From Candidatus Binatia bacterium (GTDB lineage: Bacteria > Desulfobacterota > Binatia > Bin18), in NCBI GenBank assembly GCA_951812575.1, contig OX638322.1:4530501-4594500 (forward strand): DNA of 64,000 nucleotides, read 5' to 3'. Shown piece by piece: positions 37,809 through 46,241 of this stretch. Made by a program: the position numbers and the translations under genes. Under the pieces are notes generated by a model that did no database searches, was not told the DNA's origin, and worked only from the letters and a program-made list of their open reading frames with translations. Position 1 is the first letter of the stretch; every line of letters begins with the position of its first letter.

Positions 37809-39407
37809 ATGGAAGAATTGAAAGAATTCTTTGGGGAATGTTGGGCTTGGCTTGCGGATACAAACAATTATTACCCTGTGGTGGTCCTTATAGGGGCGGC
37901 TGGGGTGGCTGCTAGCATAATCATCCCTTTGCTCGTCGCTACCATCAACAGAAACAAAAGTAAGTCGGTTTCGCCGCCACCGGACGGGGAGGTTCGCCTG
38001 ACTCCAAAGAAATTCCTGGCGCTGCTGGAAGAACGAGAGCGAGAGATAAGAAAGGAGCTTGCCCAGGCGCATGATGAAGAGCGCGCTCCGTTGGAGAATG
38101 AGCTAACAGAGGTCAAACTCAAGCTGTCCGATATTGAGGCCGCTTATGCCGAGGCGCGGGAGAAGATTATCGATCTGGAGACGGCGCTACCCCGACTTGG
38201 TGACGATATCAGCGGCAATCGGCTTGCGGAGATTCGTACGGCAATAGAGACGGGTGATTTCTCACGAGCCGACGCTCTGCTAGCGGAGATTGAAGACCGT
38301 ACGGACGCGGCCGTCGTACGAGCCGCCGAGGCAGCGTTCCAGCGAGGACAAATCGCCGCCATTCAAATCAAATGGGGCGAGGCGGCTACGCACTTTGACA
38401 AGGCTGCTCGTCTTAATCCGACCTATGACAGTCTCAACGAAGCTGGAAAATTTGCACAGCGGGCGGCGCAGTACACGATCGCACTCCGACATTTTGAAAA
38501 GCTGTTGGACCTCTCCCGCCACGAGCACGGCGAGAGGTCGCCCGAAACCGCCACCGGCCTCAGCAACCTCGCCGGCGTGCTGGAGGCAACGGGCCAGTAT
38601 GCCGAGGCGGAGCCGCTCTACCGCCAAGCCCTGGTGATTAAGCAGAAAGCCCTCGGGGAGGAGCATCCAGACTATGCCACCGGCCTCAACAACCTCGCCT
38701 TCCTGCTGGAGGCAACGGGCCAGTATGCCGAGGCGGAGCCGCTCTACCGCCAAGCCCTGGTGATTAAGCAGAAAGCCCTCGGGGAGGAGCATCCAGACTA
38801 TGCCACCGGCCTCAACAACCTCGCCGGCGTGCTGCGGGCAACGGGCCAGTATGCCGAGGCGGAGCCGCTCTACCGCCAAGCCCTGGTGATTAAGCAGAAA
38901 GCCCTCGGGGAGGAGCATCCAGACTATGCCACCGGCCTCAACAACCTCGCCTTCCTGCTGGAGGCAACGGGCCAGTATGCCGAGGCGGAGCCGCTCTACC
39001 GCCAAGCCCTGGTGATTAAGCAGAAAGCCCTCGGGGAGGAGCATCCAGACTATGCCACCGGCCTCAACAACCTCGCCGGCGTGCTGGAGGCAACGGGCCA
39101 GTATGCCGAGGCGGAGCCGCTCTACCGCCAAGCCCTGGCGATTAACCAGAAAGCCCTCGGTGAGGAGCATCCAGACTATGCCACCGGCCTCAACAACCTC
39201 GCCGGCGTGCTGCGGGCAACGGGCCAGTATGCCGAGGCGGAGCCGCTCTACCATCAGGAATTGGAGATTGTCCGAGCATCGCTGGGAGATGATCATCCAA
39301 ACACGAGGCGGCTGGCAGGAAACTACGTGCGGCTTTTAAGGGCACAGTTTCCCGACAATCCGGTATTGACCGAATTGAACACTGTGTTTGGGGAGGACGT
39401 CTTTTAG
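37809..39407 (+). CDS. Membrane-anchored TPR (kinesin light chain-like) protein
   Basis: A 532-residue protein. Residues 22-46 form a transmembrane helix (YPVVVLIGAAGVAASIIIPLL), then a coiled coil (RLTPKKFLALLEEREREIRKEL to about 125), then tetratricopeptide repeats. Six 42-residue units of the kinesin-light-chain type (ATGQYAEAEPLYRQALVIKQ) are almost identical. KLC-type TPRs bind proteins; here no NTPase or protease is fused. ATG 37809 starts the frame; upstream is a fragmented island. The repeat number may vary between strains. Confidence 0.85.
   Translation: MEELKEFFGECWAWLADTNNYYPVVVLIGAAGVAASIIIPLLVATINRNKSKSVSPPPDGEVRLTPKKFLALLEEREREIRKELAQAHDEERAPLENELTEVKLKLSDIEAAYAEAREKIIDLETALPRLGDDISGNRLAEIRTAIETGDFSRADALLAEIEDRTDAAVVRAAEAAFQRGQIAAIQIKWGEAATHFDKAARLNPTYDSLNEAGKFAQRAAQYTIALRHFEKLLDLSRHEHGERSPETATGLSNLAGVLEATGQYAEAEPLYRQALVIKQKALGEEHPDYATGLNNLAFLLEATGQYAEAEPLYRQALVIKQKALGEEHPDYATGLNNLAGVLRATGQYAEAEPLYRQALVIKQKALGEEHPDYATGLNNLAFLLEATGQYAEAEPLYRQALVIKQKALGEEHPDYATGLNNLAGVLEATGQYAEAEPLYRQALAINQKALGEEHPDYATGLNNLAGVLRATGQYAEAEPLYHQELEIVRASLGDDHPNTRRLAGNYVRLLRAQFPDNPVLTELNTVFGEDVF
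38553..39254. repeat. Six 126-bp tandem repeats inside the TPR gene
   Basis: GCAACGGGCCAGTATGCC recurs at 38586, 38712, 38838, 38964, 39090 and 39216, exactly 126 bp apart. Units are nearly identical; the variable spot alternates between codons for AFLLE and AGVLR/AGVLE, giving a 252-bp super-repeat in the middle. The last unit decays after about 39254. Confidence 0.95.
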
Positions 39408-41114
39408 AGCCGTCCACCTTCTACCCACCCGAACCGACATAGTATCAAGCCATAACAATGTTTATCCAACATGCTCAAGGGGGAATAGGAAACGGGTGCC
39501 CGAGCTGGACCGGACAGACGCGACACGCCTCTGGTCACTTGCTGGCGACCAAGGCATTTGTTAGGAGGGTCGTTGGCGTCCCAGACCTCTTCGACGTTGA
39601 TGTCCTCGCCTGACGTCCCCCTTTTGAGCTGCCCCGTGTTGTTCAGATGCCACTGACAGCCGTACAGCGGGTCGGCGACCGTAGGGTCGAGGTCCGTGCA
39701 GCGGTCCAGAAATCTGTTGTAGTCCGTGTCTTCAAAGGCGCGAATGGTGTACGGGCCGATGTCTTCACCACCAGAGTGGGTGACATTGATGTAGTAGATG
39801 CCCGCGTCGAGGCGGTCGTGGAGAAAAAAGGTATACGATGTGTCGCCCTCAACTCCTACCGATATTTTATACAGATTTGTGTCAACCGGGTTGCCTTCAC
39901 TATCAAGTAAGTCCCCGTCGATATTCACATTTTCACTCACGGCCCCCACGAAGATGCTCGTGGTTCCGGTGCTGTTGGGGATTTCGAAGCGGAAGTAGTC
40001 TTCATCGCTCGATGAGTCTATCCTGCTCCCTTCAGCGATGCCAAGTTTCAGGGGAGTGGCGGTGGTAATGGTGTTACCTGGCTCCGTCCCTTTGTTGACA
40101 TGCAAGGTGTACCACCCCGTATACCAATACGAGTCATCGCCCTCGACCTCAATGTAGTACGTTCCGGCGTCGAGGCGGGTGCGGATCAGGAATTGCAGCC
40201 GACTCGGCCAAAGATGCCCGTTATCGTTGGAGTCAATCTCATCCCCGGCGCTGTCCAGGAGGACCCCCACCGTATCACCCACCAAGCCGGTGGTACGAAT
40301 GACGATATCGGTCGTTTCCGAGAGCGTGAACGTGAAGTAATCCGTGTCGTCGCCAGTATCGATAAGCCCGTTTGCAGCCCCGTTTCCATCACTGTCGAAG
40401 GCTATCTCTTGCGCGTTGGCAATACCGCTGGTATCCACTATCGTCCTGGTGCGCAGGACGTAGGACCCCGTAGCATCCTCATAACTGGAGACCTTGATAC
40501 GGTACGTTCCCGCCGCGAGGGTCTGCCACATGAAGAAGCCCAACGGGGTGTCGGAGAAAGGACCGTCATCGTTACCGTCAATCACCGCGCCGCTACTGTT
40601 CTGGAGTTCGCCCACGGTATCGAGATCACCGAGTGTCCGGATGAGTATGCCGGTCTCTTGATTCAGCGTAAACGTGAAGTAATCCACGTCGGTCCCAGGG
40701 TCGATCACACCTTCCATCTGGGTGTCCAGCGTCAGGCTCGTCGCCTCCGAAGCGCTGTCCCCATGATCGGGAGTGCCGGTTTCAGTGGCGGACCAGTCAC
40801 CGGCGCCGTTAGCGTTGACCGCCCGTACCTGCACGTCGTATTCCGTGCTGTCGGTCAGCCCGGAGATGGTATAGGACAGGGCGCCATCGCCGGATTTCCA
40901 GGCATCGTCTTCCACAGTCCAGTTGGCGTCGGCCTTGTCGGTGGCAGCGGTCTCGATATAGCGCACATCGTAAGCTTCGATGGCTGAACTGCCGGTGTCG
41001 GAGGGTGCGGTCCAGGTCACGGCGAGGGTGAGACCGAGAGAGCTGCTGTGTCCCGCCACAACCGTGCTGATAGTCGGGGTGCCAGGTACGCCAGTCTGCG
41101 CCCAGACTTCACTA
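39404..41114 (-). pseudogene. Secreted S8-protease-type protein, main part, truncated
   Basis: Reading left from the IS630 boundary the protein has a fibronectin type III domain (LTLAVTWTAPSDTGSSAIEAY, SYTISGLTDSTEYDVQVRAV), then three PPC-like beta modules (each with DYFTFTL or DYFRFEI and LDAGTYYI-type strands), then DPLYGCQWHLNNTGQLKR and GEDINVEEVWD, the standard entry to a subtilisin (S8) catalytic domain. The frame then becomes unrelated from about 39570 and stops at 39404, so the catalytic domain is gone. The 5' end lies across the IS630 element (42174-42243). Without the protease domain it cannot be a peptidase. Confidence 0.8.
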
Positions 41115-41211
41115 GAGCATTCTGTGAATAGATTGAATCGGGGGGGGCTGTTTCAGCCAGCGTAGAGGTGTGGCAGGATCCTGGGAGCGGGAGGCAGGAG
41201 GGGAGCAGCAA

Positions 41212-41592
41212 ATGGCCCGAGCGTATTCTCAAGATTTGCGGGACCGAGTGATTGATGCCGTCCAGCGCGAGGGGATGAGTCGGCGGGCAGCGGCGCGGCG
41301 GTTTGGAGTCAGTAGCGCGTCAGCGATCAAGTGGCTCCAGCGCTTGTACGGGACCGGGGAGCGAGGGAGTGCGGGCACCGGGGGGCATCGGCCCTCGAAG
41401 GTGCAACCGGAGCGCGCGTGGCTATTGGCGGTGATCGCGGCGCAGCCGGACATCACGCTGAGCGCGTTGGCGGCCCGATTGTTGGGAGAGCGAGGGGTGA
41501 AGGCAGATACCGGGATGCTGTCCCGGTTCTTCAAAGGGGCCGGGATCAGCTTCAAAAAAAAGTCTCTCGGCCTCCGAGCAGGAGCGCCCTGA
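41212..41592 (+). CDS. IS630 transposase, frame A
   Basis: A 126-residue first frame: [17 protein letters not shown] and [22 protein letters not shown] are the paired helix-turn-helix DNA-binding region of IS630 transposases; [18 protein letters not shown] follows. It reaches an A8 run (41554-41561) in SFKKKS and stops after a short tail at 41592. Frame B continues when one A is skipped, so full-length transposase needs a frameshift or transcript slippage. ATG 41212 is in-frame and early; upstream residues to 41170 do not fit. Confidence 0.85.
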
Positions 41593-41596
41593 CATC

Positions 41597-42160
41597 GTGC
41601 GGCGGCGGGCACGTTGGCAGCGCTCCCAAGGCCAGCTTGATCCCCACCGGCTAGTGTTCATTGATGAGACGTGGGCCAAGACCAATATGACCCGCAGCCA
41701 CGGGCGCTGTCCGCGTGGCAAGCGGTTGGCCGCCACGCGCCCCTATGGGCATTGGCAAACCCTGACCTTCGTGGCTGCCCTCCGGTGCGACCGCCTGACC
41801 GCCCCCTGTGTTTTCGATGGCCCGATCAACGGCCCCCGCTTCCTCGCCTATGTGGAACAATGCCTTCTCCCCACTCTGACGGGCGGCGATATTGTCATCC
41901 TGGACAATCTCAGCAGCCACAAGAGTGCCGCCGTGCGGACAGCCATCGAGCGAGCGGGCGCCACGTTGCGCTTCCTGCCCCCCTATTCGCCCGATCTCAA
42001 CCCGATTGAACAGGTCTTCGCTAAGCTCAAAGCCTTACTGCGCCAAGCGGCGGAACGCACGGTCGAGGCGACGTGGCGCCGGGTCGGCACCCTCCTCAAT
42101 CGCTTCGGACCTGAGGAATGTAGCCATTACTTCACCCACGCTGGCTATGCGTCAACCTAA
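41597..42160 (+). CDS. IS630 transposase, frame B (DDE catalytic part)
   Basis: The catalytic DDE region of the same transposase: [22 protein letters not shown] (first Asp), [10 protein letters not shown] (second Asp) and [20 protein letters not shown] (final Glu). Joined to frame A at the A8 run the protein reads [17 protein letters not shown] across the junction, as expected for the family. The listed start is the nearest GTG after the junction; independent initiation there is unlikely. The catalytic triad is intact, so the element may be active. Confidence 0.85.
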
Positions 42161-42173
42161 AAACAGAATGCTC

Positions 42174-42243
42174 TAGAAACCAATAGCCAACACAATCCCC
42201 ATACTGCCGTCCACAGCAGTGTTTTCACCAAGTCCGAGCGCAT
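42174..42243 (-). pseudogene. 5' end (signal peptide) of the IS-disrupted protease-type gene
   Basis: ATG 42243 opens MRSDLVKTLLWTAVWGLCWL followed by LVS, then reaches the TA (42174-42175) where the IS630 element sits. Joining to 41112 with one TA kept gives SSEVWAQTGVPGTPTISTVV in frame with the part at 39404-41114, a complete signal peptide with a likely cleavage site after VWA. It starts 16 bp after the stop of the propeptide-like gene. Confidence 0.85.
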
Positions 42244-42259
42244 GTTTTGGGTCAGTCGC

Positions 42260-42832
42260 TCACTTTGTTGTGTGTTCTTTCCACCAATTAGGGCTGGACA
42301 TGAGCACCCCCTCCTGCGCAGCCAGTGTGTTGGCCAAATCCAGGGACGGAAAGCCCGGCTCGGTCTCGACGAAGAAACTGTTGGCAGCCAAATCTAAGGA
42401 CGACACCCGGTTCAGCTTGATCCGGTTGCGGGCGAAAAAGGAATTCGTTTCTGCCTTGCCCCACTCCGCATCCAGTACCAGCAGCACGCCGCCAGGCAAG
42501 GTCATCAAGGTGCCCGAGGATTCGGAACGGAACACCGGTTGCCCGGTGCTCCTCCTGGAGCTGTCCCTGGTAACGATGTGCTCCCCACTGCTTCTGGCGA
42601 CGCTGCCGTCCCTGCTCACCTCCAGGTCGGACTGCAACCGCACCCGCACGGTGCGGTCGCCGTCTTCGTAGGTGTAGACCTCCCCCTGGACAGCTTGGCC
42701 GGGGTCGCCTCGCGTCTGGGACCTGTCCTGTTTGAGAGCGGAGGAACGCTTGTCTGCCAAGGGCGGAACCATGGGTGCGAACTCAATAGGCTGAGCCCAC
42801 ACGACCGGCGCGGCAACCACCCGCCACAACAA
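42260..42832 (-). CDS. Secreted propeptide-like protein upstream of a protease-type gene
   Basis: A 190-residue protein. The N-terminus LWRVVAAPVVWAQPIEF looks like a shortened signal peptide. The C-terminal 80 residues (GTLMTLPGGVLLVLDAEW, ETNSFFARNRIKLNRVSSL, ANSFFVETEPGFPSLDLANT, LAAQEGVLMSSPNWW) resemble the inhibitor-I9-type propeptide of S8 proteases: strand, helix, strand, helix, strand. It is a separate protein that stops 16 bp before the protease-type start. A TTG at 42832 is the only reasonable start, with AGGGA 8 nt upstream; no ATG is in frame before the stop at 42875. It might fold or inhibit the protease in trans. Confidence 0.65.
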   Translation of the reverse strand: MLWRVVAAPVVWAQPIEFAPMVPPLADKRSSALKQDRSQTRGDPGQAVQGEVYTYEDGDRTVRVRLQSDLEVSRDGSVARSSGEHIVTRDSSRRSTGQPVFRSESSGTLMTLPGGVLLVLDAEWGKAETNSFFARNRIKLNRVSSLDLAANSFFVETEPGFPSLDLANTLAAQEGVLMSSPNWWKEHTTK

Positions 42833-45565: not shown

Positions 45566-45961
45566 CTAATGAAAAATGTTTCGTACCTGTAGCGGACAGA
45601 CCTGAGCAAGAAAAGTGAAGTCACGATCAGCGTGTAGCACTCTCAGGGAATGGCGAAGTGCACATGCCGCGATGAGACAATCGACCGAAGACCGGATCGT
45701 TAAGCCGCTTCGTCGTGCCGATCTATACAGGTCAATTGCAGAGTCAAATACTGAAGCTGTTATCGGAGACTCGACGACCGGGAATGAGAACATGGCTTCA
45801 CGGGCTGTCGCATATGCCTGCTGATCGTCGAAGCCTTGCAGAACCTCTTGGATGACAGGGAGACAGGTCACAATCTCTTCGAGATCAACCACAGCCTCAA
45901 TGTCAAAGGTACTCTGCCGTCGGAAGACTTCAATCCAGACGGACGAATCAACGAGAACCAT
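45566..45961 (-). CDS. PIN-domain toxin VapC
   Basis: A 131-residue PIN toxin: MVLVDSSVWIEVFRRQS (first Asp), LPVIQEVLQGF (Glu), SSVDCLIAACALRHSLRVLHADRDF (Asp pair) are the VapC active-site positions. It overlaps the upstream VapB gene by 14 bp, and convergent transcription from the nitroreductase ends 5 bp away. Confidence 0.93.
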   Translation of the reverse strand: MVLVDSSVWIEVFRRQSTFDIEAVVDLEEIVTCLPVIQEVLQGFDDQQAYATAREAMFSFPVVESPITASVFDSAIDLYRSARRSGLTIRSSVDCLIAACALRHSLRVLHADRDFTFLAQVCPLQVRNIFH

Positions 45962-46166
45962 CAGGAGTATGCTGGTCGTTCCGCATAACGGAGAGGTCCC
46001 CTTGCCAGAGACCAGAGTGCGCCAGCCCTAGAATACGTCTAGCCTTAATCCGGCGGACAAAATCATCGAGAGCCTTATTGACGACTCCAGAAAAAGTCCG
46101 CTCCCCGCTAAGACGTAAAGCTTCATCAAGCAGAGACTCATCCAACACAAGATTTGTGCGTTTCAT
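45948..46166 (-). CDS. VapB-type antitoxin
   Basis: A 72-residue antitoxin with an N-terminal ribbon-helix-helix-like part: MKRTNLVLDESLLDEALRLS and TFSGVVNKALDDFVRRIKAR, followed by a short toxin-binding tail. I use ATG 46166; the longer frame to 46202 adds residues that do not resemble the family. First in the vapBC operon with the PIN gene. Confidence 0.9.
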   Translation of the reverse strand: MKRTNLVLDESLLDEALRLSGERTFSGVVNKALDDFVRRIKARRILGLAHSGLWQGDLSVMRNDQHTPDGSR

Positions 46167-46241
46167 ACACACTAGTATGAAATGGCAGGAGGTCCAGGTC
46201 AAGGAGAAAGCTCGTCCATAGATTGAACGAGAATCCTCTGC

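What the first reader, a model, noticed from the sequence alone, without database searches (positions are those of the whole stretch)
42174..42832. Secreted propeptide-like protein encoded separately, 16 bp before an S8-type protease gene
A 190-residue exported protein ends in an I9-type propeptide pattern, and the next gene, once the IS630 element is removed, encodes a signal-peptide protein with an S8 entry sequence. Normally such a propeptide is the N-terminal part of the protease. A separate propeptide could be an intermolecular chaperone or inhibitor, as described for a few subtilases. The pair is seen in the sequence; the function is inference.
Basis: partly seen in the sequence, partly recalled or inferred. 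Interest (0 to 1): 0.65.

Follow-up and report, generated by a model that had tools for sequence, protein, structure and literature searches.

The report
Separately encoded propeptide of kexin-like protease
A bacterium related to sponge-associated species carries the broken remains of a gene pair, intact in a related species, in which the folding and safety segment of a furin-like protein-cutting enzyme is made as its own secreted protein instead of as the front of the enzyme; this looks like a natural split version of a design that is usually one chain.

Summary
On the minus strand a 190-aa ORF (42832-42260) is followed after 16 bp by a signal-peptide gene, cut by an IS630-like element, that runs through FN3 and three PPC domains into an S8 entry sequence. 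In this genome the protease is dead: the IS interrupts its signal peptide and the catalytic domain is missing after about 39575. The first ORF also lacks an ATG.

An intact adjacent pair exists in a related genus (G012, named contig Candidatus Binatota). In a second species (G007) both genes are present, but a contig break lies between them. The intact protease is kexin/furin-like (S8 plus P domain) and has no propeptide of its own. The first protein is a divergent but collinear relative of the propeptides that single-chain relatives carry directly before S8. Its free C-terminus falls at their expected cleavage site. Lys/Arg there goes with an S1-pocket Asp in the partner; a non-basic residue goes with its absence.

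Best explanation: a split zymogen with a trans-acting propeptide as chaperone and inhibitor, working like Aeromonas ASP/ORF2 but with an S8-type propeptide encoded upstream. Chaperone and inhibitor activity are inferred, not shown. New variant of a known kind; moderate interest.

The parts
42260..42832 (-). P1: separately encoded propeptide-like protein, 190 codons from a TTG; propeptide-like core is about 42263-42541
   Evidence: collinear with S8 propeptides; no ATG and an extra base at the 5' end against relatives
42244..42259 (-). 16-bp spacer between the two genes (17 bp in G012)
42174..42243 (-). 5' fragment of the protease gene: start codon and most of the signal peptide
41112..42176 (+). 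IS630-like element inserted in the signal-peptide coding region; 25-bp terminal repeats 84% complementary, TA at both ends; transposase in two frames, about 41203-41592 and 41597-42160
   Evidence: terminal repeats; second copy at genome position 3939063; DDE_3 E=1.6e-33
39575..41112 (-). rest of the truncated protease gene: end of signal peptide, FN3 (about 40781-41029), three PPC domains, S8 entry sequence; the catalytic residues are absent
39404..39574 (-). single-copy sequence after the breakpoint, in frame with the protease remnant until the stop but not homologous to the intact proteases

Best explanation
The locus is the decayed copy of a two-gene split zymogen. Gene 1 makes a secreted propeptide (P1). 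Gene 2 makes a secreted kexin/furin-like S8 protease with its own signal peptide and with FN3 and PPC domains in front of the catalytic domain, but without a propeptide. In the intact copies P1 would be exported alongside the protease and bind the nascent catalytic domain as S8 propeptides do. Its C-terminal tail would lie in the active-site cleft with the last residue in the S1 pocket, helping folding and keeping the enzyme inhibited until P1 is degraded. It is in effect born already cleaved, because the gene ends where the single-chain relatives are expected to be cut. Shown: the two genes and their order, the missing own propeptide, the propeptide relation at profile level, the register of the C-terminus, and the breakage in this genome. 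Inferred: binding, chaperone role and inhibition.
For: Intact two-gene pair in G012 with 17-bp spacer and two signal peptides; P1 and protease also both present in G007, on contigs that break between them. Protease is S8 plus P domain, nearest solved relatives kexin, furin and ASP. No I9-like segment in the G012 and G007 protease chains. P1 aligns collinearly with single-chain propeptides: E 4e-5 against L017 and 2e-4 against the set, score 26.7 versus at most 20.5 in 200 shuffles, 32.0 versus at most 24.8 in 200 shuffles and 15.4 reversed. P1 ends 8 residues after P-x, the place of KR, RK, KR or SK in single-chain relatives. Lys/Arg at that place goes with Asp at the S1 position (4 of 4), non-basic with no Asp (9 of 9), Fisher p=0.0014, G007 and G012 included and on opposite sides. 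Pairwise dN/dS of P1 0.28-0.40. Precedents for action in trans: ASP/ORF2 (PMC5638518) and CspB prodomain (PMC3567191).
Against: No direct family hit for P1, and an HMM of single-chain propeptides alone does not find P1. The structure model does not settle the fold. Adjacency is fully intact in only one genome. The S1 comparison includes close relatives and mostly subtilisin-type sequences in the no-Asp group. Many kexin-like S8 proteases have no propeptide at all (for example L047), so lack of one does not by itself demand a partner.
Confidence: 0.7

Rival explanations
1. P1 is a stand-alone inhibitor or immunity protein derived from a propeptide. The protease folds without it, and P1 only restrains the enzyme before or during export.
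For: Stand-alone propeptide-like inhibitors are known in eukaryotes (PMC6993865). In L093 a separate protein with two prodomains (PF22148 E=2.7e-18) overlaps an S8 gene that keeps its own propeptide, so separate inhibitor-like prodomains do occur next to S8 genes. Kexin-like S8 proteases without a propeptide exist.
Against: Here the partner protease has no propeptide of its own while close single-chain relatives do, so P1 is the natural candidate for the missing chaperone; the two roles are not exclusive.
Confidence: 0.2
2. The pair in all three genomes is an accident of gene decay: a fused gene was split and P1 no longer does anything.
For: True for the window copy: IS insertion, truncated protease, lost ATG, and a second deleted remnant in the same genome.
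Against: In G012 both genes are open, each with its own signal peptide, and FN3-PPC domains lie between them; P1 shows dN/dS well below 1.
Confidence: 0.05
3. P1 is an unrelated secreted protein that happens to end in a propeptide-like pattern.
For: No curated family and no solved structure matches P1 at a significant level.
Against: Collinear domain-wide profile match above all shuffles, register of the C-terminus, and the residue that tracks the S1 position.
Confidence: 0.05

Closest known systems
Aeromonas sobria ASP and its external chaperone ORF2 (kexin-like, propeptide-deficient)
   Same: Kexin-like S8 protease without its own propeptide, with a separately encoded partner in the same operon; the partner's C-terminal residue (Lys in ORF2) sits at the catalytic site and it acts as chaperone and temporary inhibitor (PMC5638518). 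ASP is among the nearest solved relatives of the protease.
   Different: ORF2 is encoded downstream, P1 upstream. P1 is a recognisable relative of single-chain S8 propeptides; relation of P1 to ORF2 is not established (3wqb_B at rank 27, E 1.2). The Binatota protease carries FN3 and PPC domains before S8.
S8 subtilase N-terminal propeptides (I9 / fervidolysin-type prodomain)
   Same: Collinear sequence at profile level, position of the C-terminus at the expected cleavage site.
   Different: Made as its own secreted protein; too divergent for Pfam.
Stand-alone propeptide-like inhibitors (POIA1, yeast proteinase B inhibitor, SPI-1, TgMIC5, Plasmodium SUB1-ProM)
   Same: Propeptide-type domain made as its own protein (PMC6993865).
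   Different: Described as inhibitors of proteases; for most of them the target keeps its own propeptide (own knowledge). Here the neighbouring protease has none.
CspB prodomain of Clostridium perfringens supplied in trans
   Same: A prodomain co-expressed in trans restores folding, and its C-terminal residues block the active site (PMC3567191).
   Different: There it is a laboratory construct from a single-chain protease; here the split is encoded in the genome.

Membership tests
S8 N-terminal propeptide (I9 type) | match to a curated I9 or prodomain model (Pfam) | tested here: not met
   0 families for P1; two of the eight members of A4 match PF22148, and the L075 propeptide matches it. P1 is therefore filed as a divergent relative, not as a Pfam member.
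S8 N-terminal propeptide (I9 type) | sequence homology with propeptides of S8 proteases | tested here: met
   hhalign E 2e-4 to 4e-5, set-level scores above all shuffles
[quoted passage not shown]
   core model pLDDT 75 with a compatible order of elements; fold searches give generic ferredoxin-like matches
S8 N-terminal propeptide (I9 type) | C-terminal tail ends at the autocleavage site | tested here: met
   P1 ends 8 residues after P-x, in register with KR/RK/KR of L071, L073, L075
S8 N-terminal propeptide (I9 type) | same chain as the catalytic domain | tested here: not met
   separate genes in G012 and in the window
S8 N-terminal propeptide (I9 type) | chaperone and inhibitor of the cognate protease | not testable with these tools
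   needs expression experiments
Kexin/furin-like S8 peptidase (S8B) | S8 catalytic domain with D, H, N, S followed by a P domain | tested here: met
   G012: Peptidase_S8 E=3.3e-42, P_proprotein E=1.1e-17; residues seen in the alignment of G012 and G007. The window copy itself is truncated before them.
ASP/ORF2 type external chaperone system | protease without its own propeptide | tested here: met
   no I9-like segment in G012 and G007 proteases
ASP/ORF2 type external chaperone system | chaperone homologous to ORF2 and encoded downstream | tested here: inconclusive
   P1 is upstream; homology to ORF2 neither shown nor excluded (3wqb_B, E 1.2)
IS630-type element (41112-42176) | DDE transposase, terminal inverted repeats, TA target, other copies | tested here: met
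   TA at both ends read from the sequence

The most novel reading that the evidence does not exclude
A natural split zymogen: the ancestral propeptide of a kexin-like protease has become a separate secreted protein encoded upstream, ending at the old cleavage site with a C-terminal residue that tracks the S1 pocket of its partner, while FN3 and PPC domains took its place in the protease chain.
Probability: 0.6. Interest if true: 0.6.

Novelty: new variant of a known kind. Interest (0 to 1): 0.45.

Why it matters
Folding of subtilases with the propeptide supplied in trans is a known laboratory experiment. Here it may be the natural state, in a clade where single-chain relatives are available for comparison. 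The pair makes it testable whether a propeptide can leave its chain without losing function, and whether its C-terminus co-evolves with the specificity pocket of the enzyme. It also suggests that ASP/ORF2 is not the only way bacteria supply a kexin-like protease with a separate chaperone.

Tried and rejected
Pfam and NCBIfam scans of P1: nothing. Profile of the three P1 proteins against PDB sequences: nothing; with single-chain propeptides added it reaches prohormone convertase 1 prodomains at E 0.2-0.3, suggestive only. AlphaFold with two sequences: full length poor (pLDDT 46), core better (75). Fold searches returned ribosomal proteins, ArgR and gyrase, i.e. common arrangements; a subtilisin propeptide is not among the rows shown, which proves nothing. 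The Spirochaetaceae hit L016 is an ABC-transporter permease, spurious. Viral contigs and plasmids: no P1. Readthrough from P1 into the protease was rejected: the frames differ and each gene has its own signal peptide. Catalytic domain moved elsewhere in this genome: not found. Sequence after the breakpoint as a repeat: single copy. The S1 script missed L075 (regex), which was read by eye instead.

Full report
What is in the window. On the minus strand an ORF of 190 codons (42832-42260, TTG start) ends in TGA; 16 bp later ATG at 42243 opens MRSDLVKTLLWTAVWGLCWLLVS. There an IS630-like element interrupts it: terminal repeats 41112-41136 and 42152-42176, TA at both ends, a transposase in two frames with DDE_3 E=1.6e-33, and a second copy of about 100% identity at genome position 3939063. 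Beyond it the protein continues with a signal-peptide cleavage region, an FN3 domain, three PPC domains and the S8 entry DPLYGCQWHLNNTGQ...DINVEEVW. Homology to intact relatives ends near 39575. The catalytic residues are not in the window copy, and the rest of this catalytic domain was not found elsewhere in the genome. The first ORF has lost its ATG: against G007 and G012 its 5' end is diverged and carries an extra base. A second, deleted remnant of the same pair lies at genome position 2416525, where P1 pieces run straight into PPC sequence. In this genome the system is decaying.

Intact relatives. Of the 148 genomes searched in the class, P1 was found in the window's genome and in two others, both of one sister genus; the six other genomes of the window's own genus lack it. 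G012, whose contig has the same length as WTHE01000192.1 of Candidatus Binatota and the same P1 and protease, has P1 of 222 aa, 17 bp, then an intact protease of 1721 aa: signal peptide, FN3, PPC domains, Peptidase_S8, P domain, FN3, cadherin-like and more. In G007 P1 lies at a contig end and the protease begins another contig whose first bases match the spacer, with a short repeat-like stretch after P1. P1 of G007 and G012 is 79% and 69% identical to the window's; pairwise dN/dS is 0.28-0.40.

What the protease is. The catalytic parts of G012 and G007 find kexin, furin and Aeromonas ASP as their nearest solved relatives. The chain before S8 holds FN3 and PPC domains; an HMM of I9-like propeptides finds none in it.

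What P1 is. Single-chain relatives from the wider phylum and from a Pantoea plasmid carry a propeptide directly before S8. P1's last ~86 residues align collinearly with these: E 2e-4 against the set and 4e-5 against L017 alone; score 26.7 versus at most 20.5 in 200 column shuffles with a larger set; score 32.0 versus at most 24.8 in 200 shuffles and 15.4 for the reversed alignment with full-length propeptides. A plain HMM of single-chain propeptides does not find P1, so the relation is remote. In the alignment P1 stops where the chains of its relatives are expected to be cut: PHWIREARKR|, PELIRPRARK|, PNWIENIGKR| against PNWWREHTAK-end (G007) and PNWWKEHTTK-end (window). The cleavage sites of the relatives are predictions from the dibasic residues.

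The last residue tracks the partner's pocket. The residue 8 places after P-x was compared with the S1 position of the protease (the Asp of SWGPxD in furin and kexin; own knowledge for its role). Four of four sequences with Asp have Lys or Arg there, nine of nine without Asp have a non-basic residue, Fisher p=0.0014. L075, missed by the script, agrees by eye (GPSD, KR). Some rows are close relatives and most of the no-Asp rows are subtilisin-type, so this p-value is generous. The two split systems fall on opposite sides: G007 has Lys with SWGPYD, G012 has Gln with SWGITR.

Structure. The core model (pLDDT 75) shows an order of elements compatible with a propeptide, but fold searches return common ferredoxin-like arrangements. 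This neither supports nor refutes.

How it probably works. By established knowledge of S8 propeptides and two trans precedents, ASP/ORF2 (PMC5638518) and the CspB prodomain supplied in trans (PMC3567191), P1 would be exported alongside the protease, help it fold and block the active site with its C-terminal tail until degraded. None of this was tested. The alternative that P1 only inhibits is real: in L093 a separate protein with two prodomains overlaps by ATGA an S8 gene that keeps its own propeptide.

Evolution. Some single-chain relatives appear to have an extra domain between propeptide and S8 (L023-L027, L031, L032, L035). A stop and a second signal peptide in such a linker would give the Binatota arrangement; this is inference.

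Novelty. It works like ASP/ORF2 but is built from a recognisable S8-type propeptide encoded upstream. Paper searches turned up no description of such a pair, in a library that lacks most subscription journals. I rate it a new variant of a known kind. Interest is moderate because the window copy is dead, few genomes carry the pair and function is inferred.

Noticed in passing
L093 (G450:C32), minus strand 2705-2031 and 2100-304: A 225-aa, probably exported protein with two tandem prodomains (PF22148 E=2.7e-18) whose stop overlaps the start (ATGA) of an S8 protease gene that has its own propeptide: a separate inhibitor-like prodomain protein beside a complete protease.
   Followed up: partly
G000:C1:2416525-2416794 (L008 4487-4900): A second, internally deleted remnant of the same pair in this genome; P1 pieces run into PPC sequence of the protease.
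   Followed up: partly
L023, L024, L025, L026, L027, L031, L032, L035: Single-chain S8 proteases with what looks like a propeptide near the N-terminus and a large extra domain between it and the catalytic domain.
   Followed up: partly
G007:C50 end (L070) and G007:C23 start (L072): In G007 about 160 bases of repeat-like sequence follow P1 at the contig end, and the protease starts the next contig; a small mobile repeat between the two genes is likely but the contigs are not joined.
   Followed up: no
window 37809-39407 (+): TPR-like protein with several nearly identical 42-residue repeats, ending beside the truncated end of the protease gene.
   Followed up: no
window 45566-46202 (-): Two small adjacent ORFs that look like a VapBC-type toxin-antitoxin pair (PIN-domain-like protein and a small antitoxin-like protein), by eye from the translations.
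   Followed up: no
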